Positions 5,541-56,528 of a stretch of 64,000 nucleotides of DNA are shown in pieces. Within the stretch, counting starts at the first letter, position 1. Each line of letters starts with the position of its first letter. Origin of the DNA: Diabrotica undecimpunctata (lineage: Eukaryota; Arthropoda; Insecta; Coleoptera; Chrysomelidae); the NCBI RefSeq assembly GCF_040954645.1, contig NC_092806.1, forward strand, positions 114,124,458 through 114,188,457, given 5' to 3'. The notes under the pieces are model-generated. The model was not told the origin of the DNA. It was given only the letters and a program-made list of their open reading frames with translations, and did not search any database. The position numbers were made by a program, and so were the translations under genes.

Positions 5541-5573
5541 TAGAGGGGCAGGAAGGTGATGGAAGCTTTGTTG

Positions 5574-7124
5574 CTATGAGCGACAAGAGTACTCTTTATG
5601 CCCAAACATCAAAGTAGTGAAGTGGTTGGTGATGTCAAGGATTAGTTGACGTCGGTCAGGGAGAAGGTTAATTAGGATAAGTGAGGTGAACTCCATAACT
5701 GTCTTCATATCAGAAGTCAGCTCGTATGGAGGGTCTCGCTTTTCAGTAGAGATTGGCTGGGTTTCTTGTGGTGTCTTAGGAGCTTCCCTTCTGTGGGGAC
5801 ATTTGACCGAGTAGGCCGCATGGTCTCCTCCACAGTTGGGACATTTATGAGTTTGTGGGGTGGGGCAGGCCGTGGATTTGTGGTCCTGGCCACAGGTTGG
5901 GCAGCGGTACTGCTTTTGCGGGCACTCCATGATGGTATGCCCGTTCTGGCTGCACCTGCCGCAGTATTTTGGGATGGGAGGCACGGGATTTGAATTGAGT
6001 GGAAGTTCCACATGGAGTCGGAGGCCGTCCATGAAGATTCCTCTGGTCAGCATCTCCGTGTATTTCAATTCACTCGATGTGACCAGCTTCACAAACGTGG
6101 TGGGGAGATTGGATTTGGATATAATCCGCCATAGTCGAACTACGGGGATATCCATTTCCGTAAAGGCTTTGGTTAGATCGTCGTCTGAGTAGTCTCTTTC
6201 GACCCCCTTGACGACGACCATGTAGGTGGGTTTGGATGAGCGGGTGGGATTGCGTGGTGTTGGGATGTGCTTGGGTGTGACGAGGACTTTGGGATCGCCC
6301 AGCGCATCACGGAGTTTTCGTTGCAACTCGACGTGGTTAACGGGGTGGATGGTTGTTAGGTGGGCGATTTGGGTGTGTAGAACTTTAACCGTCGAGATTT
6401 GATTGAGTAAAATCTCTCTGGTGTTGATGATTCGAAAGAAATCTCTCTGGTTAGATTTCTCTCGAGGGATGTTGGATATGGTGTAATTGAATGATTTTGG
6501 CTGTGTGGAGGTGATGACCTGGGATGCAGGGATGGTAGGTTTGGGAGTGGTAGTGGCGTTAGCGTATGATAAGTGTGTGTTTTGTGTGGATGGTGGGTTG
6601 ATGGGTGTGTGTATTAATTGTGAATTGTGTATATTTGTTGGTTGTGGATTGACTGTGTTTATTATTTGTGGAGTTTGGGTGATTGTCGGTTGAGCGGTAT
6701 GGGTGGATATTGGTTAAGTGACATTAGTATGTGTGGTGAAATTGTGTTGTGGTTGAGTGGTGATAGGAGAAGTGGATGGGTTTAGGATAGCGGATGACCG
6801 GGTCAGCTGAAGTTGAGCGATCAGCCGGTCGATTTGCTCTATGGGCAGAGTGGATAATATGTCCGACATAAAAGTGTCAGACAAATTGTTGGTGATCGAG
6901 GATTGTGTAGTATCAGGGATATGTATTGTAGGTGGAAAAGAGGTAGACATAGGTGGGGTGGTAAGGTTGGTTGGTGGGATTACAGGCTGTGAGACAGTTG
7001 TTCTGTGTAGAGGTAGCGGCGGAAAGTCATAGTTGTCAGGAGTGTTATTAGTGTATTGACCAGGGTCGGGCGGTTCGGCAGGGATGACTTTATTAGACCT
7101 GTTTGAACGTGTCGACCTCGGCAT
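5574..7124 (-). pseudogene. ORF1 (CCHC nucleic-acid-binding protein) of Jockey-like element, one internal stop (copy A)
   Basis: A single frame of 516 codons runs from ATG at 7124 to the stop at 5574, interrupted only by TAA at 6714-6716 (codon 137). The region before the stop is Pro/Thr/Ser-rich and disordered-looking. After it come a region like PRE_C2HC (TYMVVVKGVERDYSDDDL near residue 300) and three zinc knuckles: CGRCSQNGHTIMEC at 388-401, CPTCGQDHKSTAC at 408-420 and CPNCGGDHAAYSVKC at 428-442. In the family this protein binds the element RNA and acts as chaperone. TAA could come from CAA by one change. Copy B has the same stop, so it predates the 14-kb duplication. Confidence 0.85.
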
Positions 7125-7140
7125 TTTAGCAGTGGACGGC

Positions 7141-7744
7141 TAGGTATTATACCCAGATGACTCCTTGTTTTCTTGTACCTGGTGCAATGTACAAGATGGC
7201 AGGAATGCCGGACTATACTTATCTAAAATTATAGGCTAGCGGTCCCTCGTAGATACGTATTTTTTATATGATATTGGAAAAGTGCAGATTTCTGCCGGCG
7301 CGGCACGTTCACAAACTCCGACGGAAGCTGATAGCCCCAGCAACGGCCTACGTGGGTGGCTTCTTACGGACCACCCACTATACCTACACTGTGACCAGCA
7401 GAATCTCCGTGAGAGAGTGAAAAACGCCAAAAACCAACAGAAAACACAGCACTTACCTTCTTTGTCTCCAAATGCGGCCACGTGGTGACCAAGTGGTTGG
7501 TTTCACCAGGTTATATTCTCTTCGATACCGTTATCCAACGGTTTTTCTGCTTCTTGGCGGCTTCCAAGCGGCCAGAGCTATGGCTTTGTCTAAGACAGGC
7601 GTCTGACCCTTTGCTATCGGAAACCTAAAAGGTTTATATATTCATATTTATATTTTCCACTCGCCTCCCCTCCACTGGTTTCGCCGTGAGGGGGCGTGTC
7701 GTCGTTCGTAGCTTTTCTTTTTTTGTGTTTTGCGGGAAGGGTGT
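7141..7744. other. Non-coding block between retrotransposon ORF1 and Penelope-like relic
   Basis: It probably holds the 5' leader of the Jockey-like element and the 3' tail of the Penelope-like element. It is GC-richer than its surroundings. Short frames on both strands have no recognisable domain. I looked for a hammerhead core (CTGATGA...GAAA), which often accompanies Penelope elements, and did not find a convincing one. Confidence 0.4.
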
Positions 7745-8558
7745 TTGTGGATTATAATATTGGTATTTTGTCAATTAGTCCTTCGTCTATCCGATTAAAA
7801 TAATTTGGATACTTATATATTTCCACCGCTTCCTGATATAACCGTGGGTAGTACTGTTATGTTTTATCCAGCATCTGCGTTTCTTGCCTAAACTACAATG
7901 GCTTTTATGTTCGTTGATCCTTGTGTTTGTGTGTCTTTTCCTGGTTCCCACATATACCATTCCACATGTGCATTGTATTCGGTATACTCCGGCCGTTGGT
8001 AATGGGTCGCGTTTGTCCTTCACCGATCTTAAATAGTCCTTGATTTTCTTTGTAGGCTTGAAAATGTTCTTTATATTGGCTTTTTAAGTATTCCCACAAT
8101 TCTGTTGTTATCCCCGATATATAGGGCAAAAACGCTTTGCCTATACATGCTGTTTCTTCGTCCTTTCTTCTAAAATCGTTGTTAATCGCTTTATGTATTT
8201 CTCTTCTGGTATAACCATTAGAGGTAAGCGCTTTGTCAATATGAAGAAGTTCACTTTGCAGATGCTGTGGTTCACATATTCTCTTTACCCTCTCCTCCAG
8301 AGTTTTGATGATACTTTGTTTTTGGCCTGGATGATGATTTGAGTTCCTGTTTAGGTATCGTCCGTGTGTGTAGGTTTTCGAAACACTTTATGTCCTAAGT
8401 AACCTTCCTTTCGATTTACTAATACTTTACTCTGGGAACGCTTGTTCTCTGTTTCCATCGTAAATTGAATATTTGGATGTAGTGTGTTTATATAAGACAG
8501 GAAATCGTTAAGTTTTTCTACTCCGTGACACCAAATCACAAAAGGGTCATCGACGTAT
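7745..8558 (-). pseudogene. Penelope-like element: end of RT plus GIY-YIG endonuclease (copy A)
   Basis: Minus-strand reading begins at the RT active-site motif QYVDDPFVIW (8530-8558), continues HGVEKLNDFLSYIN and IQFTMETE, then after gaps LPYISGITTELWEYL near 8110. It ends in a GIY-YIG domain: GVYRIQCTCGMVYVG, RKRHTNTRINEHK (7830-7985). This order (RT, linker, GIY-YIG) is diagnostic of Penelope-like elements. At least two frameshifts break it. Everything upstream of YVDD is missing: the LTR at 8559 begins exactly there, so the LTR element either inserted into it or joined it by rearrangement. Confidence 0.8.
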
Positions 8559-8851
8559 TGTAATAAATAATGCTTCACTTTTGGTCTCGTGTGGTATATT
8601 TATTTAAAACACTAGATACTCATGATTTGGTTTATTGGTTATCAAGTACAATACTAGATGGTACTCAGTTGACGTTGACAATACTAACTTAGACCGTTCT
8701 CTCGATTCTTCATTCTTAACAATAATGATAATACCCATAATCCCGTGATTTCCAGCTATTTAACACACGTGAGTTTGTTATCATAATACGTTTGTTATTT
8801 GTTAATTGATACACGTTATTTAATAATCTTTCGACTACATTGCAAATTTCA
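8559..8851 (-). repeat. 3' LTR (copy A)
   Basis: It is 293 bp and aligns end to end with 13674-13963, differing by a 3-base gap (AACTTAGACC against AACGACC) and a few substitutions. Ends are TG and CA. Its outer edge abuts the YVDD codons of the Penelope-like relic. Confidence 0.85.
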
Positions 8852-9821
8852 CTAGGTCAGAGTGTGTCCTCGTTACAACGATATTTTCAATGTCGTAAAC
8901 AAATAATATATTTTCGCAAATGTGTGTCACGGTATTAAAAAGATTACTTGAATCTGGTGCTTAATTAAATCCCGTTATAGTATCTAAACCATACCCTTGG
9001 CTTAAATCCCGTTACATCCCTATCCCTCAGAAGAAAAATTTTCTGAGTGCTGTTCGTTTTCAATCAATTACATGAACTGTTTTTACTCTTCCCTTCCGAA
9101 AGAAGAAAATTTTTCGTGTCATCATCAACTGATTACTGTACATATACACATTTTTGGTACATATTTCCTTATATCTAATTTTTTTTTTATTTTTTAAATT
9201 TAGTAACCTCACCTAACCTAACATCAGCATATTATAAAGTTACCCTGATTGTTCCCTTGTAATATGCTATTTATTATCCTTTATTATGCCTTATATTAGC
9301 TTAATATTTTACCTACGTTATTTTACCTTACGTTAAATTATTTAGATTATATTACATATTACCCCCTATTATGTTATTATGTGGTTAATTACATATTATA
9401 TCTTACCCCCTATTATGTGCACATAATATTTACAATAACCTTCACATATTTTAAATAATAAATAAAAATTTATAATAATAAAATCTTATATTAATTCTTG
9501 TATTAATTCTTGCATTAATTCTTGATACCAAGTAATAGTTCTATTTTCACTTTTCATATACACTATTAATAACTTTGACATCTCACAATAAGGGTTTGTC
9601 GTTTTATTCATTTATTCATTTATCCCTATTTCTTTTGTTTAACTACTGCTACTATACAGTCTAACATTTTTCTTTTTGTTATACACATTTTAAATATATA
9701 TGTTGTACGAACTTAAAAACATTATATTCATTTAAATATATTTTTATATATTATTTGCATTCAAAAGTACTTGTATATATTACGAGTATATACATTGACT
9801 CTAATTGTAGCAAAGTGTTGT
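8852..9821 (-). other. Decayed 3' interior of the LTR element (copy A)
   Basis: Very AT-rich, with runs such as CCTTATATTAGCTTAATATT and repeated ATTACCCCCTATTATG (9360-9415). No env-like or other frame is recognisable on either strand. If the ancestor had an env gene, it is not detectable here. Confidence 0.4.
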
Positions 9822-10130
9822 TTCCTTAATTATTCTAGCTATAAACTCTGTGCCTTGGTCTGCTATTATTTTTCTGGGTACTCCATACCTCAAGATAAAT
9901 TTTTCTACCAATGATTTGGCTACTGTTTTGGCTTATTTTATTTTCTATTACATATTCTTCTACGTAGTTGCTTAATTCGCATTGTACGTCAATATATCTG
10001 TTTCCATTTTCATCCATGTACATTTTCATGGATTCCTTGTTTATGATTTAGTGCTTATGCCTTTTTAGTCGTCGCATCTCTTCACATTTCACGTGTTTCT
10101 CAACATTTCTTCGTAATTCGTTCCAGAAAT
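9822..10130 (-). pseudogene. Integrase fragment of the LTR element (copy A)
   Basis: Minus-strand reading shows the end of a zinc-binding region (ELRRNVEKHVKCEEMRRLKR near 10050-10115). Next comes DENGNRYIDVQCELSNYVEE (from 10017) and, one frame over, ILRYGVPRKIIADQGTEF (9840-9895). The last block contains the second catalytic aspartate of the retroviral-type DDE core. The pieces match Gypsy-type integrases in order but are shortened and split by at least one frameshift and an in-frame stop, so no functional integrase can come from this copy. Confidence 0.75.
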
Positions 10131-11546
10131 AGTATTAACTTATATTTCTGTATTTAATATATCATATTTATTCTTACATATCCTTCCTGTAACATGTGGA
10201 AGTCGTTAATTATAACTCTTCTTGACCTGCTTATCTTGTACTATATTATGTATTGCTTGTATTATGTTTATCTTATACTATACAAATTTTTATACATTTT
10301 CCTTAAAAAAAATTATTTTTTATTTAAATCTTTTCGTATTTTATTAAGAATTCGCTGATTCTTATTTTCCACCTCTTCTTATTCTCATTTTTCATTATTA
10401 TCATTTTCTTTATAATCTTCTGCACTCACATTTGTGAGCCAAAATCCCAACAAGTCTCCTAATGCTATTCCTGAAGCATAAATCTTTAAAATAAATTTAT
10501 TTTTCATCGATAAATCGGGGAATTCCATAACCGGGGCTTATTAGATATATCTTGGGCTTATTAAATTTTTCTTGCATCGTAAATAAAATTTTAAACACGG
10601 ATCATAATAATAAAATATTTAACCTGGTCAGTTACATTGTACTCATTTCAAAGTTTATGGAATTGCTTACTACGTACATTCCAACTGTATCAAATAACAT
10701 ATGTAATGTTTTTATAACGAATACTGAGTTTGCTATCGTAATAAAATATTATAGGTATGTTTTTTTTTGTTTATTGTTTGGTTTCTCGTCTTTTACAAAC
10801 TAACTTTTGCTTGTACATCTGGGTCTTTTCCTAAATAAAAAACATCTGCATATTTTGCATTTTTTTCGATGGGCCGTTTTCTTCCAATATTGATAGTTTT
10901 TACTGTGCTTAATAGTTGTTCGACTCTTTTTTACTCTTTGCCGTGTTTCTTCCATATAAAATATATAAAAAAATTTTCCTGTTTTTGTATCTTCGGAATA
11001 AAACTTCTAATTTATATTTCTCGATTATTTACATTTATGATTCGTATAGGTAACATAATTTTAATCGGTTTATCTATTAATCCTACTGTAAATTCCTTCT
11101 CAACTTCTGGTTTATATATTACTGTAACTGTTTCTTCTGTTTTTCAGTTCGATCTCGAAAGTAATTTCGTCAAATATGTAATAATACTGACATAATTATA
11201 CTTTTCAAAATAATCTGTTCATCATTTTTCGCCTTTGTGCGTTTAATTTACTTAACATGTTTTCTTCTCTTGCATATAAATAAAATAATTGTAGGGAATC
11301 GTCTTTCATTGTGACAAACTTCCTTTTCAATAATTTTCCATTTACTTTAATAAAAAAAATCATTATTCAAAATTCGTTCCGCAATTTTAATCCATTCTGT
11401 AGTTACTGTATTGTCGTGCTGGAGCCGCAGGACTCTCAGCGGGTTGGGATTCAAGTACCACCCTAGCTTATCCTCTTAGCAGCCTGCTGCTCGACGTAGG
11501 TTTCAACCATTAAGGTCGAACCATATGCAGTTTGCCTACATTTCTG
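10131..11546 (-). other. Region expected to hold protease, RT and RNase H, not recognisable (copy A)
   Basis: Between the Gag tail and the integrase fragment there are only about 1.4 kb, far less than a complete Gypsy pol needs. Open segments are short and AT-biased. I found neither a D-S/T-G protease motif nor a YxDD RT motif on the minus strand. Internal deletion plus decay is the simplest reading. Confidence 0.5.
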
Positions 11547-11855
11547 TCAAAAATCTACTTCTGTCACTGTATTCGTATTCGCATGCGGTGCGTAATATGC
11601 TATTGCTGTGCCTCTATTTCTGTGGCATCTCACCTGTGTCCATTGATTATTCTTTGTTCTTCGTTGTGATTGCCAATCTCCTCTGTTTCTATTACGATAT
11701 ATCCTCGTATTATGTCTTCCATATTCACTTATATTTCTATAATTTTTGTTCCTATATTCTTTTCTTTCTTCGAATTTATTTTTATAATATCCATATATTG
11801 CATTCTTACCTTCTTTTCTCATATCAAAATCGTATTTGTTCCTGTAATTTAACAC
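11547..11855 (-). pseudogene. Basic C-terminal tail of Gag, frame-shifted from BTB-Gag (copy A)
   Basis: A frame of about 100 codons, one frame over from the end of BTB-Gag, is rich in Arg, Asn, Tyr and Lys (RKEYRNKNYRN, RIYRNRNRGDW). This composition is typical of the nucleic-acid-binding C-terminus of Gypsy-type Gag proteins that lack a zinc knuckle. It overlaps the BTB-Gag stop by a few bases, so it was probably continuous with it before a one-base change. A programmed frameshift cannot be excluded but no clear slippery heptamer is seen. Confidence 0.6.
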
Positions 11856-12904
11856 TTTTCCTTGTGTGCTATCTTGTCGATCAATAAAAATTTGTATATT
11901 ACCTCTTGGGTGGTTGAAAAGTTACATGCTTCCAAAATGAATTTAGCTTTTTCTGTGTTGACGTTGCGTTTCATTGTAGCTACTACTGCCTCTGTTGTGT
12001 ATTTTTTCGCTAGTTCCAATGACATTCCTTCCGCTACGTATGCAACTTTTAGTTGTTCCGCTAATTCTTCAACTTCAGATGCATAGACCTCTGCATCTTT
12101 ATGTCCTTGTCTTTTCTTCGCCAATTTAGCTATTACCGTCTTTGGACTGTCGCCTCCCAGTTCTCTCTTCAGTACCTCTGCTATTCTTGCGATTGTATCT
12201 TCTGTAGTTATAACGTTTCTGGCCTTATTGGTTAATCTTGCCTTTATTAATGTTGTCGCTGTCTCCTCGTGTCCTATCGCTATTTTCTCAAGGAGTTCTA
12301 GTGCATCTAAAAATGACTGCAGTTTACCTGCTTTTCCATCAAACTCGCGGGGTAACACCTTGCTTGCGATATTTAAAAATTCGTTTGTTGTAAGAGCCAT
12401 ACTTATTTCTTGCTCTGTGTCGCTATGTTCTTCCTTCTTTATAGGTTGTTGTTTCTTTGTCACAGGTAGAGAAACCGGTTTAAAATCTCTTACATTTTGA
12501 GTATATTCTTTATCCGAAATTTCCATAATGTTATTATCATTTAAAACTTTTCTATCTCCAGTGAGTCCTTGTATTTGCAATGATTCGGCCGTTTCAATGA
12601 AGGTATTTAAATTTTCTTGTCTAATTTGTACTTCTCCATGGTATATAAATTGTAATAAGTCTCTTAGTGCTTCGTAAGTCACGTTTGTCAAAATTACTAT
12701 AGGATGTTGACAGGGATTTGACATAAAAATTTCTTTAAAATATGGGCTACAAACCGAAAGAACCATTTTATGCGCTTTTATGCATTTTCCTTGTGCTGAA
12801 AGCGTTACGTCTACAAAATCTTGACTCTTCCATAATGAATTTATTCCTGAACTCATATTTTCGTGAAAATTGTTCCAACATAATGAAAATTTTTCTGATG
12901 CCAT
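11849..12904 (-). CDS. BTB/POZ domain fused to Gypsy-type Gag (copy A)
   Basis: The ATG at 12904 opens 351 codons. Residues 1-115 are a BTB/POZ domain of the insect tramtrack/bric-a-brac type: FSLCWNNFHENMSSGINSL at 6-24, then DFVDVTLSAQGKCIKAHKMV at 29-48, then LSVCSPYFKEIF, and FIYHGEVQIRQENLNTFIET at 85-104. Such domains dimerise nuclear regulators. A Lys/Glu-rich linker (about 120-168) follows. From Met169 the protein reads as a Gypsy-type Gag: MALTTNEFLNIASKVLPREF at 169-188, LQSFLDALELLEK at 195-207, and a helical capsid-like region to about 345. Met169 looks like the original Gag start, so the BTB was added upstream. The frame is open in both copies, differing by one Arg/Lys change at 139. 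Function is unknown; it may be an element protein or a captured host gene. The longer frame from 12910 uses no ATG. Confidence 0.85.
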   Translation of the reverse strand: MASEKFSLCWNNFHENMSSGINSLWKSQDFVDVTLSAQGKCIKAHKMVLSVCSPYFKEIFMSNPCQHPIVILTNVTYEALRDLLQFIYHGEVQIRQENLNTFIETAESLQIQGLTGDRKVLNDNNIMEISDKEYTQNVRDFKPVSLPVTKKQQPIKKEEHSDTEQEISMALTTNEFLNIASKVLPREFDGKAGKLQSFLDALELLEKIAIGHEETATTLIKARLTNKARNVITTEDTIARIAEVLKRELGGDSPKTVIAKLAKKRQGHKDAEVYASEVEELAEQLKVAYVAEGMSLELAKKYTTEAVVATMKRNVNTEKAKFILEACNFSTTQEVIYKFLLIDKIAHKEKC

Positions 12905-13660
12905 GGTCAATTATCTTTAAAAGTTCTTTTAAATTCGTTTTTCTTCCTTATAAATGTAACAATAATTCTAAATATCCTAATTTATTGTAGCTAAATAGTA
13001 AAATAAAAAGTCATATCCGATTTCTTCGTCTATATTAATTGAAGAATTTGTCATTTAAGCAAATTCATGTCGTAATTTAATATTTTCCGACTTAGTCACA
13101 GTATATTTTCATGGTCAAATATAAATATTTTTAAAACTATACCTTAAGCAAATAAAATTATATGTCACATTTGTTTCATTAAAAAATAGAATTTGATATA
13201 TAAACAGTTATTAGCGATAATTTAAAAATAAATTATATTCTGTACTTTTAAAAGCAATAAAAGTTGTGTACTCAACATTCTGAACTTGAATTAGTTAAAT
13301 TCTTATATTCAAATACTAAGTAATAATTTCTATCTGTTAGACTGTATAATTTAAATAAGGGATAAAAAATAAAATTTACTTACATAATATATTTCATATA
13401 TGGTTTTTGTTAATTCACTTTTGTCCATTTATCCATTTTTTTATTTATTGTCCATTGTCATGAGCTGGGATGCTGTCGCGGTGCTCCTGGCGGGTTTGGT
13501 CCGGAATTTGGCGGGAATTTTCTTAACTGCTGATGCATTTTCTCTTTCGAACTGGTACACTGGGTTCCATATAACATCTATATAAATTTCCATTTAAATT
13601 TCCAGTATGTAGTTGCCATTTTTATTTATTTCTTTGGATCAGAAGACTCCTTATTCAAAA
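12905..13660 (-). other. Leader region upstream of BTB-Gag (copy A)
   Basis: About 750 bases separate the primer-site-like sequence from the BTB-Gag ATG. Near 13380-13390 the minus strand has ATGTAAGTAAA, a strong splice-donor match, so a leader intron is possible; no equally clear acceptor lies just before the ATG. A GC-richer patch at 13460-13530 stands out from an AT-rich background. No other open frame is convincing. Confidence 0.4.
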
Positions 13661-13673
13661 GGCAGGATCGCCA
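13661..13673 (-). promoter_or_regulatory. Candidate tRNA primer-binding site
   Basis: On the minus strand TGGCGATCCTGCC directly follows the LTR terminus TTACA. The TGG start complements a tRNA CCA end. The tRNA identity is not assigned. Confidence 0.6.
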
Positions 13674-13963
13674 TGTAATAAATAATGTTTCACTTTTGGT
13701 CTCGTGTGGTATATTTATTTAAAACACTAGATACTCATGATTTGGTTTATTGGTTATCAAGTACAATACTAGATGGTACTCAGTTGACGTTGACAATACT
13801 AACGACCGTTCTCTTGATTCTTCATTCTTAACAATAATGATAATACCCATAATCCCGTGATTTCCAGCTATTTAACACACGTGAGTTTGTTATCATAATA
13901 CGTTTGTTATTTGTTAATTGATACACGTTATTTAATAATCTTCCGACTACATTGCAAATTTCA
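13674..13963 (-). repeat. 5' LTR (copy A)
   Basis: It is 290 bp with TG and CA ends on the minus strand and is near-identical to 8559-8851. Beyond its outer edge begins the ZNF 5' flank (CCAAGAAAACAATTACTAAA), which is also present at 35673 in unit C. This fixes the LTR border to the base. Confidence 0.85.
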
Positions 13964-14974
13964 CCAAGAAAACAATTACTAAATGAAGTAAAGAGATTAT
14001 TAAGTAAAAAACAGAATAAACTATTAGGTATTATTGCTTTCCACATTTAAATAATGATTACAACAGTCGTTTAAGACTAAAATGCCACTCAACTTCTAAC
14101 ACCTTTTTTGGGACCTCAAAAAGATGCAAAAATATTTGCCGCTCCTTCCTCGGGCTTTTCTCTAAACCCCCCTCGTTGGCAGTGAAAAACGGAAAACATT
14201 GATTTACCAAGAATCTGTACGCCGTAGAAAAAAATGTTTCAAACTAGAAATGTAACAGGTTATTTTAAAGAAAAATGTGTGTTAACACTTCTGGTGTAGA
14301 ATAAATAGTTCTCTCAGAAATAACGCTTGAAGCGACCGGCGATTTTGAATGTTACTTACACGAGCGAAATTAAAATTTTTAAGTAAAATTTCGACTGTAA
14401 AAACTCGATATCTTTAAATCCGAATGTCCCATCGACAAAAATCAAAGTGCATTTTAAAGGTGAAAAATGCAACTTTCGCATCCAATTTTTGCGTTTTGGC
14501 ACTAATGAAGTCAGGCTCTATGAGGCTGTTAAATAAATAAAATAATCATTTTTAGTTTTCCTCCAATGTTTTAGTTAAAGGTCGGGTACCATGGGACGCT
14601 AGACACTATCTGCCTACTTCTTGCTAGAGGAGGTAACATGCTTGATAGTCATATGCTGTGAACATAACTGAGAAGTATACCCAGTCAAACACATAAAAAA
14701 TTAGTATTTGGTAGACATGCGTTAATAGGGCTGAAGTACTGCATAAAAAAGCAGAAACAAGCTCAGAATCATCACAAAAAGTGTTGCAGTAAACCTGAAT
14801 AGAATACGTCAATGTATAAAAAGATTTGGAAACTTGGGCGAAGCACCAACTAGGTTGGACGATAAATGACGTTGTCATAGTGTGTCTTTACTTTATTTAT
14901 TCCAGCGTTGTAAGATGTTATTTATGATCTGCAGTTTCAGCATGCAAAGTTTTATAGTTTGATTTTTCTTTTAG
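13964..14974 (+). repeat. 5' flank of ZNF copy A, shared with copies B, C and D
   Basis: The block begins CCAAGAAAACAATTAC and is alignable to B (28448 on), C (35673-36584) and D (42927-43847). It contains GGTTGGACGATAAATGACG and ends at a polypyrimidine tract plus TTTTCTTTTAG, a splice-acceptor-like site. No ATG-initiated exon joins it obviously, so promoter and first exon of the ZNF gene are not identified. Confidence 0.6.
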
Positions 14975-16490
<1,516 letters not shown>

Positions 16491-17288
16491 AAAGATATAT
16501 ATTTTTAAATGAAACACTCTGTATTTTATTTTAAATTTCATTGCAAGGATACAAAGTAGTAACCTGTTATACTGGACATTTAAAAACGTTTAACCAATAT
16601 TACATGAATAACCATAAAAACCGATTACCAATAATTATTTGTTTCATCAAAAATTGAACTTTTACCATTATTGTATGTTAACTTGGTAATCATCATTTAA
16701 GGTTGATCTGCACCCCCAAAAGACAATCTCCAAATTCAAAAAATTTGAGAAGGTATATGTGATGACTAGAAGTATTTTGACAACTCTTAAGCAGACTTCA
16801 TGTTTTCGTTTTTGAAAAAAACAAAAAACTACTTTTTTCCAAGTATAAAGCGGGAAAACCAAACATAGGATTTTGTTAATTTTTTACAGCATTAAGATAT
16901 ATTTATAAGAAATACTTATGAATTTTTTGAAAATTTTTGAATTTACAGTTTTGTCCCAATAGGAAAAAATAATTTGTTTCGGCTTATACTAAAGCTACCG
17001 GTAAGAACCCGAAAAAAAAATTAATAACAACATATATAAAACTGTAAAAGTGGAAAATATTTGCAATAAAACGTTAAATATTTTTCCTAAACATATGAAA
17101 AATCGCGTCAAACAAGAATTATGTCTTGAACTGCCGCTTTCAAATTGTTCTCTCATCTGAAGCAATGGTAGTATTTATCATCGATAGATAGCATTACGTT
17201 CGGCTTCGAAACGCTTCAAACGAAACGTCATACTAACAGGGTTGCCGTATCAATTACTTTGTACAACACTTTGGCAGATTATCAAAGT
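16491..17288 (+). repeat. 3' flank of ZNF copy A, shared with B and C
   Basis: The sequence after GAGTACCGCATCAAAG matches 30965-31763 and 38320-39126. It is AT-rich and non-coding. It ends at the TTAA where piggyBac inserted (17289-17292). Unit C shows the uninterrupted target (ATTTAATAGGAATG at 39129-39142). Confidence 0.7.
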
Positions 17289-17292
17289 TTAA

Positions 17293-17520
17293 CCTTTGTG
17301 TCTATACCCAGGTACCTGGGTATCCTTGGTAATTGTTTTATCTGAATCATTGACGATAGTATAAATATTTTTATTCGAGCTTCTAGTTATTCCTAAAATT
17401 ATTTAGAACGAAGAGATTTATAATAAAAACCAAAGAAAAAAATGCATATAATATATTAAAATTACCTGTCAAAGTTTTTGCACCATTACATCCACACCCA
17501 TGGCACCCGGGTAACACTAA
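17293..17520 (-). mobile_element. piggyBac left end, cut by the tandem-duplication junction (copy A)
   Basis: TTAA at 17289-17292 is followed by CCTTTGTGTCTATACCCAGG, the same terminus as the full element at 31768. The sequence then stops at 17520, where it joins the retrotransposon RT gene of unit B. Only the transposase 3' side is present. Confidence 0.9.
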
Positions 17521-19068
17521 TGTCACTCTCCATCTCTGACACCATTGTTCAACACGGAGCAGATGATTTTGAGCTGACCTAAGTGTAGAGTCGACGTGTG
17601 GTGTTGTTGTAAGGAGTGCTGTATCGTCTGCGTATAGTAGAGTAGTTGTATTGGTATATCTAGGGTTAGGGAAGTCGCTGTTGTAAATTGTGTAGAGTAT
17701 TGGTGCCAACACGGAACCCTGAGGAACTCCCGCTGTGGGAGTGAAGGATGTAGAGAATCGATCACGCTCCTTGACTGTGATTTGCCGTTGAGAGACATAT
17801 GAGTGGATGAGTCTGACGAATGGAGTTGGTAGCCCGATGCTCTCTAGTTTCTTGACCAGTCCCACATGCCAGACTTGGTCAAAGGCTTTTTGAACATCGA
17901 GGAAGATACCTAGTGACACTTTGCCGTCGTTCAGACTTTGTGTTAGGTGTGTGACGATTTCTGTCAATGCCGTTTTGGTTGAGTACCCTTCTCTAAAGCC
18001 GAATTGGTAAGATGGGATGATATTGTGTTCTGTGGTGAAGTCTACGAGTCTTTCTTTAAGGATTCTCTCGAAGACTTTCGCCAGGACGTTAAGGAGAGAT
18101 ATCGGCCTATAAGAGTGTGGATCGGTACGTAGCTTGCCTTTTTTCAGAAGCATAGTTGTATTGGCTACTTTCCAAGGTTTTGGGAAGTAGCAGAGTTTAA
18201 GAGTGGCATTGACTATGTTCATCAGGTACAGATTGACGCTCAGCGGGAGGTGTTGCACACAGTTCCTGGCAATCTTGTCAGGCCCCGGTGCATTTGATTT
18301 GCCAATTTGGCAGAAATGTTTGAAGGTTTGGTGATCCACAGGTGCCATGATTGGATGTTCATGGGGTGCCTGAGGGTCGAAAGGGGTTCTGAGCAGTCGC
18401 GTTATGTCTTTCACTGCGTCGGCACAGAAGGCATGATCAGATCTCGGATCGTCTGGGGAGATTAAGGTATTTTGTAAGTGAGTTTTGAAAGCTTCTGCTT
18501 TCTGTTGGTTTGAGTTGATAATATGATTGTTCACCACAAGGTGAGAAGGATTATTGGTTTTTTGTTTGGTTAGGCATTTGAATTTATGCCAGAATCTACC
18601 GCTGTCACGGTAATCAAGACTGGAGGTCGCTGCAATCCATTGTCTGGACTGCAGATTGTTGACCTGCAGTTTGATCGCCGCAGACAGCCGGTTATACTCT
18701 GTTTTGACAAGGGAATTGCGGGTACGTTGGAACTGACGGAGGAGACGTCTCTTTTGCTTAATTTTATCGACGATAAACTGAGGTAGAGGAGGTTTATTAG
18801 GGTTGTTACCCCTATTTGGGACTGACAAATCAGCTGCTTGGTTTATCAGGTTAGAAATTACCGTGATACCTCGGTCGATATCATCTGGGTACGTTAAGTT
18901 GACTAACTCTGGAGTGTTATTTGATAGGTATGTTTGGAAGAGTTCCCAGTTGGCGTGTTTGTAGTCTCTTATTACTTTAGGAGGGTCTGGAGGTGGAGGG
19001 TTCAGTATCTGTTCCTTAACCAGCAGAGGTAGGTGACGTAATCGAGTCTCCCAGGAAGCATTCGTCAC
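17383..19068 (-). pseudogene. RT part of Jockey-like ORF2, fused at the junction to piggyBac flank (copy B)
   Basis: This frame matches copy A through WCQRWRVT (residue 515) and then crosses the duplication junction at 17520. It reads 46 further residues from piggyBac non-coding sequence before a stop at 17383. Motif A and YADD are present as in copy A. Two visible amino-acid differences from copy A are Pro to Leu in LLKKGKxRTD and Thr to Asn in LPLSVxLYLM. The chimeric tail is a by-product of the rearrangement and has no expected function. Confidence 0.85.
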
Positions 19069-19651: not shown

Positions 19652-19684
19652 TAGAGGGGCAGGAAGGTGATGGAAGCTTTGTTG

Positions 19685-22670: not shown

Positions 22671-22963
22671 TGTAATAAATAATGCTTCACTTTTGGTCTC
22701 GTGTGGTATATTTATTTAAAACACTAGATACTCATGATTTGGTTTATTGGTTATCAAGTACAATACTAGATGGTACTCAGTTGACGTTGACAATACTAAC
22801 TTAGACCGTTCTCTCGATTCTTCATTCTTAACAATAATGATAATACCCATAATCCCGTGATTTCCAGCTATTTAACACACGTGAGTTTGTTATCATAATA
22901 CGTTTGTTATTTGTTAATTGATACACGTTATTTAATAATCTTTCGACTACATTGCAAATTTCA
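22671..22963 (-). repeat. 3' LTR (copy B)
   Basis: It is 293 bp and equals 8559-8851, with TG and CA ends on the minus strand. Confidence 0.85.
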
Positions 22964-23933
22964 CTAGGTCAGAGTGTGTCCTCGTTACAACGATATTTTC
23001 AATGTCGTAAACAAATAATATATTTTCGCAAATGTGTGTCACGGTATTAAAAAGATTACTTGAATCTGGTGCTTAATTAAATCCCGTTATAGTATCTAAA
23101 CCATACCCTTGGCTTAAATCCCGTTACATCCCTATCCCTCAGAAGAAAAATTTTCTGAGTGCTGTTCGTTTTCAATCAATTACATGAACTGTTTTTACTC
23201 TTCCCTTCCGAAAGAAGAAAATTTTTCGTGTCATCATCAACTGATTACTGTACATATACACATTTTTGGTACATATTTCCTTATATCTAATTTTTTTTTT
23301 ATTTTTTAAATTTAGTAACCTCACCTAACCTAACATCAGCATATTATAAAGTTACCCTGATTGTTCCCTTGTAATATGCTATTTATTATCCTTTATTATG
23401 CCTTATATTAGCTTAATATTTTACCTACGTTATTTTACCTTACGTTAAATTATTTAGATTATATTACATATTACCCCCTATTATGTTATTATGTGGTTAA
23501 TTACATATTATATCTTACCCCCTATTATGTGCACATAATATTTACAATAACCTTCACATATTTTAAATAATAAATAAAAATTTATAATAATAAAATCTTA
23601 TATTAATTCTTGTATTAATTCTTGCATTAATTCTTGATACCAAGTAATAGTTCTATTTTCACTTTTCATATACACTATTAATAACTTTGACATCTCACAA
23701 TAAGGGTTTGTCGTTTTATTCATTTATTCATTTATCCCTATTTCTTTTGTTTAACTACTGCTACTATACAGTCTAACATTTTTCTTTTTGTTATACACAT
23801 TTTAAATATATATGTTGTACGAACTTAAAAACATTATATTCATTTAAATATATTTTTATATATTATTTGCATTCAAAAGTACTTGTATATATTACGAGTA
23901 TATACATTGACTCTAATTGTAGCAAAGTGTTGT

Positions 23934-24242
23934 TTCCTTAATTATTCTAGCTATAAACTCTGTGCCTTGGTCTGCTATTATTTTTCTGGGTACTCCATAC
24001 CTCAAGATAAATTTTTCTACCAATGATTTGGCTACTGTTTTGGCTTATTTTATTTTCTATTACATATTCTTCTACGTAGTTGCTTAATTCGCATTGTACG
24101 TCAATATATCTGTTTCCATTTTCATCCATGTACATTTTCATGGATTCCTTGTTTATGATTTAGTGCTTATGCCTTTTTAGTCGTCGCATCTCTTCACATT
24201 TCACGTGTTTCTCAACATTTCTTCGTAATTCGTTCCAGAAAT
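23934..24242 (-). pseudogene. Integrase fragment of the LTR element (copy B)
   Basis: Duplicate of 9822-10130: the block DENGNRYIDVQCELSNYVEE and, in another frame, VPRKIIADQGTEF are visible with the same frameshift. Confidence 0.75.
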
Positions 24243-25658
24243 AGTATTAACTTATATTTCTGTATTTAATATATCATATTTATTCTTACATATCCTTCCT
24301 GTAACATGTGGAAGTCGTTAATTATAACTCTTCTTGACCTGCTTATCTTGTACTATATTATGTATTGCTTGTATTATGTTTATCTTATACTATACAAATT
24401 TTTATACATTTTCCTTAAAAAAAATTATTTTTTATTTAAATCTTTTCGTATTTTATTAAGAATTCGCTGATTCTTATTTTCCACCTCTTCTTATTCTCAT
24501 TTTTCATTATTATCATTTTCTTTATAATCTTCTGCACTCACATTTGTGAGCCAAAATCCCAACAAGTCTCCTAATGCTATTCCTGAAGCATAAATCTTTA
24601 AAATAAATTTATTTTTCATCGATAAATCGGGGAATTCCATAACCGGGGCTTATTAGATATATCTTGGGCTTATTAAATTTTTCTTGCATCGTAAATAAAA
24701 TTTTAAACACGGATCATAATAATAAAATATTTAACCTGGTCAGTTACATTGTACTCATTTCAAAGTTTATGGAATTGCTTACTACGTACATTCCAACTGT
24801 ATCAAATAACATATGTAATGTTTTTATAACGAATACTGAGTTTGCTATCGTAATAAAATATTATAGGTATGTTTTTTTTTGTTTATTGTTTGGTTTCTCG
24901 TCTTTTACAAACTAACTTTTGCTTGTACATCTGGGTCTTTTCCTAAATAAAAAACATCTGCATATTTTGCATTTTTTTCGATGGGCCGTTTTCTTCCAAT
25001 ATTGATAGTTTTTACTGTGCTTAATAGTTGTTCGACTCTTTTTTACTCTTTGCCGTGTTTCTTCCATATAAAATATATAAAAAAATTTTCCTGTTTTTGT
25101 ATCTTCGGAATAAAACTTCTAATTTATATTTCTCGATTATTTACATTTATGATTCGTATAGGTAACATAATTTTAATCGGTTTATCTATTAATCCTACTG
25201 TAAATTCCTTCTCAACTTCTGGTTTATATATTACTGTAACTGTTTCTTCTGTTTTTCAGTTCGATCTCGAAAGTAATTTCGTCAAATATGTAATAATACT
25301 GACATAATTATACTTTTCAAAATAATCTGTTCATCATTTTTCGCCTTTGTGCGTTTAATTTACTTAACATGTTTTCTTCTCTTGCATATAAATAAAATAA
25401 TTGTAGGGAATCGTCTTTCATTGTGACAAACTTCCTTTTCAATAATTTTCCATTTACTTTAATAAAAAAAATCATTATTCAAAATTCGTTCCGCAATTTT
25501 AATCCATTCTGTAGTTACTGTATTGTCGTGCTGGAGCCGCAGGACTCTCAGCGGGTTGGGATTCAAGTACCACCCTAGCTTATCCTCTTAGCAGCCTGCT
25601 GCTCGACGTAGGTTTCAACCATTAAGGTCGAACCATATGCAGTTTGCCTACATTTCTG

Positions 25659-25967
25659 TCAAAAATCTACTTCTGTCACTGTATTCGTATTCGCATGCGG
25701 TGCGTAATATGCTATTGCTGTGCCTCTATTTCTGTGGCATCTCACCTGTGTCCATTGATTATTCTTTGTTCTTCGTTGTGATTGCCAATCTCCTCTGTTT
25801 CTATTACGATATATCCTCGTATTATGTCTTCCATATTCACTTATATTTCTATAATTTTTGTTCCTATATTCTTTTCTTTCTTCGAATTTATTTTTATAAT
25901 ATCCATATATTGCATTCTTACCTTCTTTTCTCATATCAAAATCGTATTTGTTCCTGTAATTTAACAC
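25659..25967 (-). pseudogene. Basic Gag tail (copy B)
   Basis: Same Arg/Asn-rich frame as 11547-11855, again displaced by one frame from BTB-Gag. Confidence 0.6.
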
Positions 25968-27016
25968 TTTTCCTTGTGTGCTATCTTGTCGATCAATAAA
26001 AATTTGTATATTACCTCTTGGGTGGTTGAAAAGTTACATGCTTCCAAAATGAATTTAGCTTTTTCTGTGTTGACGTTGCGTTTCATTGTAGCTACTACTG
26101 CCTCTGTTGTGTATTTTTTCGCTAGTTCCAATGACATTCCTTCCGCTACGTATGCAACTTTTAGTTGTTCCGCTAATTCTTCAACTTCAGATGCATAGAC
26201 CTCTGCATCTTTATGTCCTTGTCTTTTCTTCGCCAATTTAGCTATTACCGTCTTTGGACTGTCGCCTCCCAGTTCTCTCTTCAGTACCTCTGCTATTCTT
26301 GCGATTGTATCTTCTGTAGTTATAACGTTTCTGGCCTTATTGGTTAATCTTGCCTTTATTAATGTTGTCGCTGTCTCCTCGTGTCCTATCGCTATTTTCT
26401 CAAGGAGTTCTAGTGCATCTAAAAATGACTGCAGTTTACCTGCTTTTCCATCAAACTCGCGGGGTAACACCTTGCTTGCGATATTTAAAAATTCGTTTGT
26501 TGTAAGAGCCATACTTATTTCTTGCTCTGTGTCGCTATGTTCTTCCTTCTTTATAGGTTGTTGTTTCTTTGTCACAGGTAGAGAAACCGGTTTAAAATCT
26601 TTTACATTTTGAGTATATTCTTTATCCGAAATTTCCATAATGTTATTATCATTTAAAACTTTTCTATCTCCAGTGAGTCCTTGTATTTGCAATGATTCGG
26701 CCGTTTCAATGAAGGTATTTAAATTTTCTTGTCTAATTTGTACTTCTCCATGGTATATAAATTGTAATAAGTCTCTTAGTGCTTCGTAAGTCACGTTTGT
26801 CAAAATTACTATAGGATGTTGACAGGGATTTGACATAAAAATTTCTTTAAAATATGGGCTACAAACCGAAAGAACCATTTTATGCGCTTTTATGCATTTT
26901 CCTTGTGCTGAAAGCGTTACGTCTACAAAATCTTGACTCTTCCATAATGAATTTATTCCTGAACTCATATTTTCGTGAAAATTGTTCCAACATAATGAAA
27001 ATTTTTCTGATGCCAT
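25961..27016 (-). CDS. BTB/POZ domain fused to Gypsy-type Gag (copy B)
   Basis: ATG at 27016 opens the same 351-codon frame as copy A. BTB/POZ occupies residues 1-115, a charged linker 120-168, and Gag from Met169. The only protein difference seen is Lys for Arg at residue 139 (QNVKDF against QNVRDF). The intact frame contrasts with the broken pol, ZNF and ORF1 frames of the same unit. Because the duplication is recent, two open copies count as little more than one observation. Role unknown: structural protein of the element, a captured BTB regulator, or a host-domesticated fusion. Confidence 0.85.
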   Translation of the reverse strand: MASEKFSLCWNNFHENMSSGINSLWKSQDFVDVTLSAQGKCIKAHKMVLSVCSPYFKEIFMSNPCQHPIVILTNVTYEALRDLLQFIYHGEVQIRQENLNTFIETAESLQIQGLTGDRKVLNDNNIMEISDKEYTQNVKDFKPVSLPVTKKQQPIKKEEHSDTEQEISMALTTNEFLNIASKVLPREFDGKAGKLQSFLDALELLEKIAIGHEETATTLIKARLTNKARNVITTEDTIARIAEVLKRELGGDSPKTVIAKLAKKRQGHKDAEVYASEVEELAEQLKVAYVAEGMSLELAKKYTTEAVVATMKRNVNTEKAKFILEACNFSTTQEVIYKFLLIDKIAHKEKC

Positions 27017-27772
27017 GGTCAATTATCTTTAAAAGTTCTTTTAAATTCGTTTTTCTTCCTTATAAATGTAACAATAATTCTAAATATCCTAATTTATTGT
27101 AGCTAAATAGTAAAATAAAAAGTCATATCCGATTTCTTCGTCTATATTAATTGAAGAATTTGTCATTTAAGCAAATTCATGTCGTAATTTAATATTTTCC
27201 GACTTAGTCACAGTATATTTTCATGGTCAAATATAAATATTTTTAAAACTATACCTTAAGCAAATAAAATTATATGTCACATTTGTTTCATTAAAAAATA
27301 GAATTTGATATATAAACAGTTATTAGCGATAATTTAAAAATAAATTATATTCTGTACTTTTAAAAGCAATAAAAGTTGTGTACTCAACATTCTGAACTTG
27401 AATTAGTTAAATTCTTATATTCAAATACTAAGTAATAATTTCTATCTGTTAGACTGTATAATTTAAATAAGGGATAAAAAATAAAATTTACTTACATAAT
27501 ATATTTCATATATGGTTTTTGTTAATTCACTTTTGTCCATTTATCCATTTTTTTATTTATTGTCCATTGTCATGAGCTGGGATGCTGTCGCGGTGCTCCT
27601 GGCGGGTTTGGTCCGGAATTTGGCGGGAATTTTCTTAACTGCTGATGCATTTTCTCTTTCGAACTGGTACACTGGGTTCCATATAACATCTATATAAATT
27701 TCCATTTAAATTTCCAGTATGTAGTTGCCATTTTTATTTATTTCTTTGGATCAGAAGACTCCTTATTCAAAA

Positions 27773-27785
27773 GGCAGGATCGCCA
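27773..27785 (-). promoter_or_regulatory. Candidate tRNA primer-binding site (copy B)
   Basis: TGGCGATCCTGCC on the minus strand, directly after the 5' LTR, as in copy A. Confidence 0.6.
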
Positions 27786-28447
27786 TGTAATAAATAATGT
27801 TTCACTTTTGGTCTCGTGTGGTATATTTATTTAAAACACTAGATACTCATGATTTGGTTTATTGGTTATCAAGTACAATACTATACCCTGGCCGCTTAAA
27901 ACATGGAATCCAAGGTCGCATGATCACTCAATGCAAGCATCGACAGGCGCTCGAAACTAGACCTTATGGGAAACTGTTTACACCGTCATTATTTGTGTCA
28001 TGATACTATATATTAAATGTTTTATGTATCATGATTTGTGTTTCACTTTCGCTGGCTGGTGAATTTTGTGAAAATGTTTAAAATTAATGTAAATCAATAA
28101 CCTCTAAAAAACGGTATAAATATATTATAGCAACATTGTTAGTTCGTTTTTGTTGAGCGGTGTAAACGTGGGAAAAGTGGTAACATAGGAAGAGGACTAT
28201 TTAAGAGTGCGTGCCATTCACATGATCATTCCATCTTTTCAGCGGCTCAACTATAGATGGTACTCAGTTGACGTTGACAATACTAACGACCGTTCTCTTG
28301 ATTCTTCATTCTTAACAATAATGATAATACCCATAATCCCGTGATTTCCAGCTATTTAACACACGTGAGTTTGTTATCATAATACGTTTGTTATTTGTTA
28401 ATTGATACACGTTATTTAATAATCTTCCGACTACATTGCAAATTTCA
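27786..28447 (-). repeat. 5' LTR with MITE insertion (copy B)
   Basis: Removing 27884-28253 and one TA copy restores a sequence matching the 290-bp LTR at 13674-13963. The insertion splits it after CAATAC. Confidence 0.85.
27884..28253. mobile_element. 370-bp MITE, Tc1/mariner-like by its TA duplication
   Basis: Unit A reads CAATACTAGATGG where unit B reads CAATAC-TA-[insert]-TA-GATGG, so TA was duplicated. The insert ends are imperfect inverted repeats of about 25 bases; both contain GCCGCT-x-AAAA-x-ATGG when read inward (CTGGCCGCTTAAAACATGG at the left; reverse complement of CCATCTTTTCAGCGGC at the right). No transposase frame is present. It is absent from unit A, so it inserted after the duplication or is a haplotype difference. 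Confidence 0.85.
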
Positions 28448-29457
28448 CCAAGAAAACAATTACTAAATGAAGTAAAGAGATTATTAAGTAAAAAACAGAA
28501 TAAACTATTAGGTATTATTGCTTTCCACATTTAAATAATGATTACAACAGTCGTTTAAGACTAAAATGCCACTCAACTTCTAACACCTTTTTTGGGACCT
28601 CAAAAAGATGCAAAAATATTTGCCGCTCCTTCCTCGGGCTTTTCTCTAAACCCCCCTCGTTGGCAGTGAAAAACGGAAAACATTGATTTACCAAGAATCT
28701 GTACGCCGTAGAAAAAAATGTTTCAAACTAGAAATGTAACAGGTTATTTTAAAGAAAAATGTGTGTTAACACTTCTGGTGTAGAATAAATAGTTCTCTCA
28801 GAAATAACGCTTGAAGCGACCGGCGATTTTGAATGTTACTTACACGAGCGAAATTAAAATTTTTAAGTAAAATTTCGACTGTAAAAACTCGATATCTTTA
28901 AATCCGAATGTCCCATCGACAAAAATCAAAGTGCATTTTAAAGGTGAAAAATGCAACTTTCGCATCCAATTTTTGCGTTTTGGCACTAATGAAGTCAGGC
29001 TCTATGAGGCTGTTAAATAAATAAAATAATCATTTTTAGTTTTCCTCCAATGTTTTAGTTAAAGGTCGGGTACCATGGACGCTAGACACTATCTGCCTAC
29101 TTCTTGCTAGAGGAGGTAACATGCTTGATAGTCATATGCTGTGAACATAACTGAGAAGTATACCCAGTCAAACACATAAAAAATTAGTATTTGGTAGACA
29201 TGCGTTAATAGGGCTGAAGTACTGCATAAAAAAGCAGAAACAAGCTCAGAATCATCACAAAAAGTGTTGCAGTAAACCTGAATAGAATACGTCAATGTAT
29301 AAAAAGATTTGGAAACTTGGGCGAAGCACCAACTAGGTTGGACGATAAATGACGTTGTCATAGTGTGTCTTTACTTTATTTATTCCAGCGTTGTAAGATG
29401 TTATTTATGATCTGCAGTTTCAGCATGCAAAGTTTTATAGTTTGATTTTTCTTTTAG
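28448..29457 (+). repeat. 5' flank of ZNF copy B
   Basis: Same block as 13964-14974, with a one-base loss near 29077. It ends in the acceptor-like TTTTCTTTTAG. No independent gene is seen. Confidence 0.6.
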
Positions 29458-30964
<1,507 letters not shown>

Positions 30965-31763: not shown

Positions 31764-31767
31764 TTAA

Positions 31768-37579: not shown

Positions 37580-38320
<741 letters not shown>

Positions 38321-56502: not shown

Positions 56503-56528
56503 ATTTACGTTAAAGTCAGATAATATTT

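What the first reader, a model, noticed from the sequence alone, without database searches (positions are those of the whole stretch)
11849..12904. BTB/POZ domain fused to the N-terminus of a Gypsy-type Gag inside an LTR element
A 351-codon open frame joins an insect BTB/POZ domain (residues 1-115) to an apparently complete Gypsy-type Gag that begins at an internal methionine (169). It lies between LTRs with TG/CA ends and just downstream of a primer-site-like sequence. I know of no standard LTR element with BTB-Gag architecture. The BTB could help Gag multimerise, direct it to chromatin through host BTB partners, or let it interfere with host BTB regulators. The frame stays open while pol is destroyed, which hints at either recent death or retention for a host role.
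Basis: partly seen in the sequence, partly recalled or inferred. Interest (0 to 1): 0.88.

Follow-up and report, generated by a model that had tools for sequence, protein, structure and literature searches.

The report
Beetle retrotransposon Gag with captured BTB
A family of mobile DNA elements in a Diabrotica beetle has swapped the front of its capsid protein for the BTB domain of a host chromatin protein that looks like Mod(mdg4), a protein known in flies for its ties to retrotransposons, and the family has spread recently although it lost its own copying enzymes.

Summary
The BTB-Gag frame is real (minus strand 12904-11849) and is not a one-off join: the host genome gives 118 matching rows at 116 places, 90 of 118 rows without a stop. 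Eight full-length copies are 5.3-5.8 kb LTR elements with 0-2 LTR mismatches; 6 of 8 examined have perfect 4-bp target duplications. In 14 of 14 ten-kb loci BTB-Gag is the only frame of 150 aa or more inside the element; 20 of 20 further samples have no RT frame. This is a Gag-only, non-autonomous family that moved recently. Residues 1-146 match beetle mod(mdg4)-like proteins (67%); residues 158-409 match the Gag of an autonomous, BTB-less Gypsy relative (65%). The BTB therefore replaced the Gag N-terminus and was not added to a complete Gag. Four BTB-Gag copies carry a late capsid segment 86-88% identical to the autonomous clade, against 74-76% in five others, which points to shared particles. 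dN/dS is about 0.35 for BTB and Gag in the main group (biased sample). BTB function is inferred: most likely Gag oligomerisation, possibly with host Mod(mdg4). Nine paper searches showed no earlier report.

The parts
8559..9016 (-). 3' LTR of the element (TG at 9016, CA at 8559; contains a short local repeat near its start)
   Evidence: 98% identical to the 5' LTR over 294 columns (3 mismatches, 3 gap columns)
9017..9028 (-). polypurine-tract-like stretch before the 3' LTR, same motif as in sibling copies
   Evidence: read; siblings
9816..9932 (-). integrase scrap of a decayed pol
   Evidence: tblastn with L034 pol, E=2.3e-4
11849..12904 (-). BTB-Gag open frame, 351 codons plus stop; leaves the family frame after residue 345
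12560..12841 (-). BTB/POZ domain, residues 22-115
   Evidence: Pfam PF00651, E=1e-26
12467..12904 (-). mod(mdg4)-like part, residues 1-146 (BTB plus linker)
   Evidence: 67% identity of sibling P0002 to Diabrotica mod(mdg4)-like P0036, E=1e-72
11870..12433 (-). Gag part shared with siblings, residues 158-345; capsid region
   Evidence: 65% identity of sibling P0002 to L034 Gag, E=2.6e-108; capsid-like model of homologue P0005
12905..13659 (-). untranslated leader between primer site and ATG
   Evidence: in sibling L012 the leader has no significant similarity to the leader of L034
13660..13673 (-). primer-binding-site-like TGGCGATCCTGCCT; first 10 bases shared with the autonomous relative
13674..13964 (-). 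5' LTR, outer ~125 bases missing
22671..28448 (-). second copy of the element, in the tandem duplication; its 5' LTR carries a ~365-base insert (27884-28247)
25961..27016 (-). BTB-Gag frame of the second copy

Best explanation
This is a copy of a non-autonomous, Gag-only Ty3/Gypsy-type LTR retrotransposon family of Diabrotica beetles. An ancestor acquired codons 1 to about 150 (BTB plus linker) of a host mod(mdg4)-like gene, which took the place of the roughly 110-residue N-terminal segment of its Gag; its pol decayed, while the BTB-Gag frame was kept open (read from sequence). The RNA is copied and integrated by enzymes supplied in trans by BTB-less Gag-Pol relatives. BTB-Gag co-assembles with the relatives' Gag through the shared capsid region, so both RNAs meet in one particle and recombine (inferred from the mosaic gag, the shared primer-site start and the absent pol). 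The BTB, of the arthropod Tramtrack type that forms dimers and hexamers, most likely serves as a replacement oligomerisation module at the Gag N-terminus. It may also bind host Mod(mdg4) and so reach chromatin (inferred, untested). My confidence is about 0.9 for the fusion and the multi-copy element, 0.85 for Gag-only in-trans spread, 0.8 for a mod(mdg4) source, and 0.45 for oligomerisation as the main BTB role.
For: 118 rows at 116 places, 90 of 118 without a stop, 82 of 118 with a 458-codon frame (my counts). Eight LTR pairs with 0-2 mismatches, elements 5.3-5.8 kb. Perfect 4-bp target duplications in 6 of 8 examined. No other forward frame of 150 aa or more inside the element in 14 of 14 ten-kb loci. 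At the RT position of 20 more copies the longest frames are 41-84 aa, against 266 aa in two autonomous controls. BTB half to mod(mdg4)-like protein 67% over 1-146; Gag half to BTB-less L034 Gag 65% over 158-409. L034 pol has PR, RT, RNase H and integrase. The linker of L012 matches the D. undecimpunctata linker KPVSLPxxKKQQP and has the length seen in Diabrotica and Diorhabda, not that of the bruchines, Leptinotarsa or Anoplophora. Mosaic gag: codons 277-345 of L020, L021, L035 and L039 are 86.5-87.9% identical to L034, against 74.4-75.8% for four main-group copies and L036; codons 157-276 are 72.3-75.1% in all nine compared. dN/dS among 28 copies 0.35 (CI 0.20-0.66) for BTB and 0.32 (0.20-0.52) for Gag. 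Between species BTB is 109 of 115 identical and Gag 100 of 110. Published: TTK-type BTBs, Mod(mdg4) included, multimerise and heteromerise (PMC11426971, passages).
Against: No expression or protein data were available. The host mod(mdg4) gene of this genome could not be searched (tool unreachable), so the donor rests on annotated proteins. The element starts MASE, as in other beetles, not MSSE as in Diabrotica mod(mdg4), and the tree does not nest it in Diabrotica. Copies were picked from a protein-ranked list, which favours open frames and low dN/dS. Within the divergent group of 7, dN/dS is 0.94 for BTB and 0.50 for Gag. The shared-versus-singleton test is significant for Gag (p=0.0007) but not for BTB (p=0.79). 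L036, grouped as divergent, does not carry the L034-like segment, and L037 and L038 were not compared. The LTRs of L034 and of this family are not alike, so L034 is a clade member, not the proven helper. Gene conversion could also make a mosaic gag. The model of the BTB-Gag protein itself failed (mean pLDDT 37). In 3 of the 20 RT-position samples (L106, L107, L111) the stretch did not align to the reference copy, and in L097 it fell on the 3' end. Not all copies are young: L020's partial LTR matches are 93.5 and 98.3%, the window's 98%.
Confidence: 0.72

Rival explanations
1. The BTB acts mainly on host chromatin. BTB-Gag binds Mod(mdg4) or other TTK-type BTB proteins, and thereby either tethers the particle or integration complex to chromatin or poisons a host factor that restrains retrotransposons.
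For: The donor looks like mod(mdg4). Mod(mdg4) represses the HeT-A retrotransposon in Drosophila and is a gypsy insulator partner (PMC9723646, abstract and passages). Its BTB forms heteromers with many TTK-type BTBs (PMC11426971, passages).
Against: No binding data. The apparent excess of copies in satellite contigs is largely array amplification: 31 of 41 junctions lie in the satellite, but with only about 10 distinct flanks, so no targeting is shown.
Confidence: 0.3
2. BTB-Gag is a host gene family (domesticated), kept for a host function and only incidentally flanked by repeats.
For: Long open frames: 90 of 118 rows without a stop, and low dN/dS in the main group.
Against: Matches are spread over many contigs, with LTRs, primer site and polypurine tract, 4-bp target duplications and near-identical LTR pairs in the copies examined: the signature of a mobile element.
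Confidence: 0.05
3. The BTB is a chance passenger: a neutral transduction, or a nested insertion, with no function.
For: Captured fragments in LTR elements are known (PMC7264820, passages). The BTB shared-versus-singleton test is not significant. Within the divergent group BTB dN/dS is 0.94.
Against: Present and in frame in subfamilies that differ strongly in late gag; BTB dN/dS 0.35 (main group) and 0.40 (main against divergent) with upper confidence limits 0.66 and 0.83; 109 of 115 BTB residues shared with the D. balteata element; no significant match to the original Gag N-terminus is left.
Confidence: 0.12
4. Assembly error joining a BTB exon to a gag.
For: The window lies in a 99.95% identical tandem duplication, a setting where misassembly occurs.
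Against: The same join is found at 116 places on many contigs and in a protein of another species.
Confidence: 0.01

Closest known systems
Gag-only families of Athila (plant Ty3/Gypsy, superfamily recalled; PMC2410132, passages read)
   Same: Families with LTRs plus one Gag frame under purifying selection, thought to be mobilised in trans, and linked to pol-bearing families by recombination, including hybrid gag
   Different: No host domain in Gag is mentioned in the passages seen; plants, not animals
TR-GAG elements (PMC8704663, passages read)
   Same: LTRs and a single Gag frame; transposition without own pol observed there
   Different: Described in plants; the element followed there is of a Copia family; no captured host domain mentioned in the passages seen
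Ty3/Gypsy elements with acquired host domains, e.g. AlkB-type demethylase in orchid Gypsy (PMC9289625, abstract read); chromodomain elements (listing only)
   Same: Host-type domain fixed in an LTR element
   Different: There an additional frame, or for chromodomains a Pol extension (recalled); here the domain stands in for the N-terminus of Gag
mod(mdg4)-like genes of beetles (BTB plus linker plus variable FLYWCH ends)
   Same: BTB and linker, 67% identity over residues 1-146
   Different: The element lacks the FLYWCH ends; Gag follows instead
Autonomous BTB-less Gypsy relative L033/L034 in the same genome
   Same: Gag 65% identical over 158-409; first 10 bases of the primer site
   Different: Has pol (one open frame in L034, two in L033) and its own Gag N-terminus; LTRs not alike

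Membership tests
LTR retrotransposon | two LTRs, primer-binding site, polypurine tract, short target duplication | tested here: met
   (siblings); the window copy has LTRs but a truncated 5' LTR
Ty3/Gypsy superfamily | pol order PR-RT-RH-IN; homologous Gag | tested here: inconclusive
   Own pol is only scraps; order shown in the Gag-homologous relative L034; 4-bp duplications fit
Gag-only non-autonomous element (TR-GAG-like) | single Gag frame, no pol frame, multi-copy | tested here: met
   14 of 14 ten-kb loci and 20 of 20 samples without RT frame; 116 places; the remaining places were not read downstream
Gag-only non-autonomous element (TR-GAG-like) | mobilised in trans by an autonomous partner | tested here: inconclusive
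   recent copies without pol; mosaic gag with the autonomous clade; no direct assay
TTK-type BTB domain | BTB fold | tested here: met
   PF00651 E=1e-26, by sequence profile; the structure model failed
TTK-type BTB domain | FxLRWN N-terminal motif | tested here: inconclusive
   FSLCWN in the window and in most of 35 copies (some differ), FSLRWN in the D. balteata copy, FSLCWD in the host protein; motif from PMC11426971
TTK-type BTB domain | hexamer formation through hydrophobic B3 strand | not testable with these tools
   I69/I71 are read as sitting where LOLA has I70/I72 (residues from PMC11426971; placement by eye); no assay
mod(mdg4) gene | BTB-linker common region with FLYWCH isoforms | tested here: not met
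   BTB and linker match, but Gag follows and no FLYWCH is found in P0002 or P0003: derived from it, not a member
Retroviral-type capsid (Gag CA) | CA fold | tested here: inconclusive

The most novel reading that the evidence does not exclude
A retroelement has taken the self-association domain of the very chromatin protein that regulates retroelements, Mod(mdg4), and built it into its Gag. The BTB-Gag then co-opts or poisons Mod(mdg4) complexes. The join may have arisen because mod(mdg4) 5' exons are naturally trans-spliced to other 3' exons.
Probability: 0.2. Interest if true: 0.92.

Novelty: new variant of a known kind. Interest (0 to 1): 0.76.

Why it matters
It shows Gag evolving by domain replacement: a host oligomerisation domain stands in for the usual N-terminal segment in a family that has spread recently. 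It makes a concrete question testable: can a BTB do the work of a Gag N-terminus? It also links a Gypsy-type element to mod(mdg4), long known in flies as a gypsy modifier. The natural pair of related Gags with and without BTB in one genome is a ready comparison. It gives an animal example of the Gag-only, recombining lifestyle described for plant Athila, and of the TR-GAG layout.

Tried and rejected
Targeting to satellite DNA: 67 of the 118 rows lie on contigs outside the ten largest (my count), which suggested targeting. I fetched 38 such 5' junctions and added L009, L013 and L015: 31 of 41 flanks match one ~150-160-base satellite, but only about 10 distinct flanks remain among the 29 with a located LTR start, and 0 of 9 chromosomal flanks match. 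Much of the excess is array amplification, so I dropped the claim. The satellite reference came from L009, L013 and L015 themselves; without them it is 28 of 38.

Structure of the BTB-Gag protein: mean pLDDT 37, discarded. Sequence profile of Gag against the PDB: no useful match. Viral structure library: no match with E of 0.001 or less. Pfam finds no Gag family in P0002, P0003, L034 Gag, P0005 or P0124.

Search for an autonomous BTB-Gag-Pol copy: none in 34 copies examined, but that is 34 of 116 places. The helper tRNA was not sought further. Leader comparison was uninformative. PMC10886601 (passages) was read and not used.

Host mod(mdg4) locus, intron positions near codon 150 and an unbiased LTR-based copy sample: not obtained, because the genome search gave no answer.

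Literature: the listings showed no BTB-Gag element. Open-licence papers only and capped lists, so absence from print is not shown.

Dropped rows: L014 and L020 (partial LTR matches) and L009, L013, L015, L021 (no LTR pair seen) are not among the eight dated copies.

Full report
What is there. The frame reported at 11849-12904 is on the minus strand: 351 codons from ATG at 12904 (the same frame read on the plus strand is full of stops). Residues 22-115 are a BTB/POZ domain (PF00651, E=1e-26). The element around it runs from 8559 (3' LTR, 8559-9016) to 13964 (5' LTR, 13674-13964, outer ~125 bases missing), with a primer site at 13660-13673, a leader of about 755 bases, BTB-Gag, and a decayed pol of which an integrase scrap is recognisable at 9932-9816. 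The two LTRs show 3 mismatches and 3 gap columns over 294 columns. The window holds the element twice, in a 14.1-kb tandem duplication (3410-13771 against 17521-27883 at 99.95%, and 13764-17523 against 28248-31998 at 99.6%); the second copy's 5' LTR carries a ~365-base insert.

It is a family. The host genome (1.743 Gb, 2867 contigs) gives 118 matching rows at 116 places, 116 scored of 778 first-look candidates. By my count 90 of 118 rows have no stop inside the match and 82 of 118 have a frame of 458 codons stop to stop. The scored set is the best by protein score, so the true share of intact copies is probably lower. In 14 ten-kb stretches around copies no forward frame of 150 aa or more lies inside the element except BTB-Gag, 458 codons in 9 of 14. 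Eight elements with both LTRs resolved are 5.3-5.8 kb, and their aligned LTR pairs have 0-2 mismatches, i.e. under about 0.9 My at an assumed 2.9e-9 per site per year (rate recalled). Not all are young: L020's partial LTR matches are 93.5 and 98.3%. Six of 8 examined copies have perfect 4-bp target duplications; L016 and L014 do not at the ends I found. LTRs read TGTAA...TTACA.

Gag-only. In 20 further copies, 800 bases at the expected position of RT have longest forward frames of 41-84 aa, against 266 aa at the equivalent place in two autonomous relatives. Nine of those 20 show short integrase or RNase H scraps. Seventeen of 20 align to L012 at 74-99% (L097 only at its 3' end); L106, L107 and L111 do not. 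The shared decay says that pol was lost before most of the amplification, and the near-identical LTRs say that the family kept moving. Enzymes in trans are the published explanation for such families (Athila, PMC2410132; TR-GAG, PMC8704663; passages read).

Where the BTB comes from. Residues 1-146 of sibling P0002 are 67% identical to a Diabrotica BTB protein with FLYWCH isoforms, annotated as uncharacterised, 'tramtrack beta' or 'modifier of mdg4-like' in different beetles. I call it mod(mdg4) because many isoforms carry FLYWCH ends; that reading rests on PMC11426971 and PMC9723646 (passages). The match runs past the BTB into the linker: L012's KPVSLP..KKQQP agrees with D. undecimpunctata except at two residues, and its length is that of Diabrotica and Diorhabda, not of the bruchines, Leptinotarsa or Anoplophora. 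Against a Diabrotica donor: the element starts MASE as in the other beetles, not MSSE, and the unrooted tree attaches it by a long branch (0.46) without nesting it in Diabrotica. So capture in the galerucine lineage is a hint, not a proof. No other TTK-type paralogues were available as an outgroup.

Recombination with the autonomous clade. I sorted 35 copies into 28 main and 7 divergent. Synonymous divergence between the groups is concentrated in codons 277-345 (dS 0.83) and is low in the BTB (0.12) and in early Gag (0.15) (windows). In codons 277-345, L020, L021, L035 and L039 are 86.5-87.9% identical to L034, while L012, L010, L019, the window copy and L036 are 74.4-75.8%; in codons 157-276 all nine are 72.3-75.1% (5 of the 7 divergent and 4 of the 28 main copies were compared). 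The simplest reading is template switching between BTB-Gag RNA and RNA of the autonomous clade inside one particle. Gene conversion is the alternative. L034's LTRs are not alike, although the first 10 bases of its primer site are the same, so the helper is placed in that clade, not identified.

Selection. Among the 28 main copies dN/dS is 0.35 (0.20-0.66) for the BTB, 0.81 (0.39-3.32) for the linker and 0.32 (0.20-0.52) for Gag. Against the divergent group it is 0.40 (0.21-0.83) for the BTB and 0.29 (0.19-0.43) for Gag. Within the divergent group it is 0.94 for the BTB and 0.50 for Gag, as expected of older copies with stops, but it gives no support for constraint on the BTB there. Changes shared by two or more copies are less often non-synonymous than singletons overall (32:31 against 101:41, p=0.007) and in Gag (p=0.0007), but not in the BTB (12:8 against 35:19, p=0.79). 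The copies came from a list ranked by protein score, so these figures lean towards constraint. A D. balteata protein (P0004, 265 aa) is the same fusion; BTB 109 of 115 and Gag 100 of 110 residues agree with L012. A search with the Gag part alone found three proteins, P0005, P0004 and P0124, among 1781 candidates of limited length.

Host. The best protein matches are Diabrotica. The contig of 160,216,187 bases nearly matches a D. undecimpunctata contig of 160,217,234, and flow-cytometry sizes of 1.56-1.64 Gb for two fucata-group species (PMC8982398, passages) are close. I take it as probably D. undecimpunctata.

How it most likely works. Shown: fusion, Gag-only structure in the copies read, recent movement, shared capsid region with a Gag-Pol clade, mosaic gag. 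Inferred: co-assembly with helper Gag, and the BTB as N-terminal oligomeriser. TTK-type BTBs form hexamers of dimers through a hydrophobic B3 strand and mix broadly with one another, Mod(mdg4) included (PMC11426971, passages). The element keeps that stretch hydrophobic (PIVILTNV). A chromatin role through host Mod(mdg4), which represses HeT-A in flies (PMC9723646, abstract and passages), remains open.

Novelty. Gag-only elements and host-domain capture are both known. A host BTB in place of the Gag N-terminus, from a mod(mdg4)-like donor, did not appear in the listings of nine literature searches of an open-licence library.

Noticed in passing
window 3410-31998: 14.1-kb tandem duplication at 99.6-99.95% identity, recent or an assembly duplicate; contains the BTB-Gag element, a non-LTR retrotransposon and a C2H2 zinc-finger array.
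   Followed up: partly
window 14920-16460 and 29281-30937, 36408-38297, 42523-44754: Arrays of 84-base C2H2 zinc-finger repeats (28 codons each; Pfam checked on the first array only), related to each other at 78-95%; the shape of a fast-expanding ZNF cluster.
   Followed up: no
window 27884-28247: About 365-base insert in the 5' LTR of the second copy, absent from the first and apparently flanked by TA; MITE-like, so it probably came after the duplication.
   Followed up: partly
window 3359-6326 and 55618-60564: Non-LTR retrotransposons with endonuclease and RT (and RNase H in the second), frames broken into several pieces.
   Followed up: no
L056, L058-L060, L062-L069, L071-L072, L075, L078-L079, L081, L083-L088, L090-L093 (5' junctions): BTB-Gag copies sit inside a ~150-160-base satellite on small contigs, with the same junction repeated up to 6 times: the elements are being multiplied by satellite array expansion.
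   Followed up: yes
L080 (C63:246528-246878): Polypurine tract directly before an LTR at the expected 5' end: elements joined head to tail through a shared LTR.
   Followed up: no
L033, L034: Autonomous Gypsy family with open Gag and (in L034) one open Pol frame, split in two in L033; LTR stretches held are 99-100% identical, so recently active.
   Followed up: partly
window 41354-42187: DDE_3 transposase fragment near the zinc-finger arrays.
   Followed up: no
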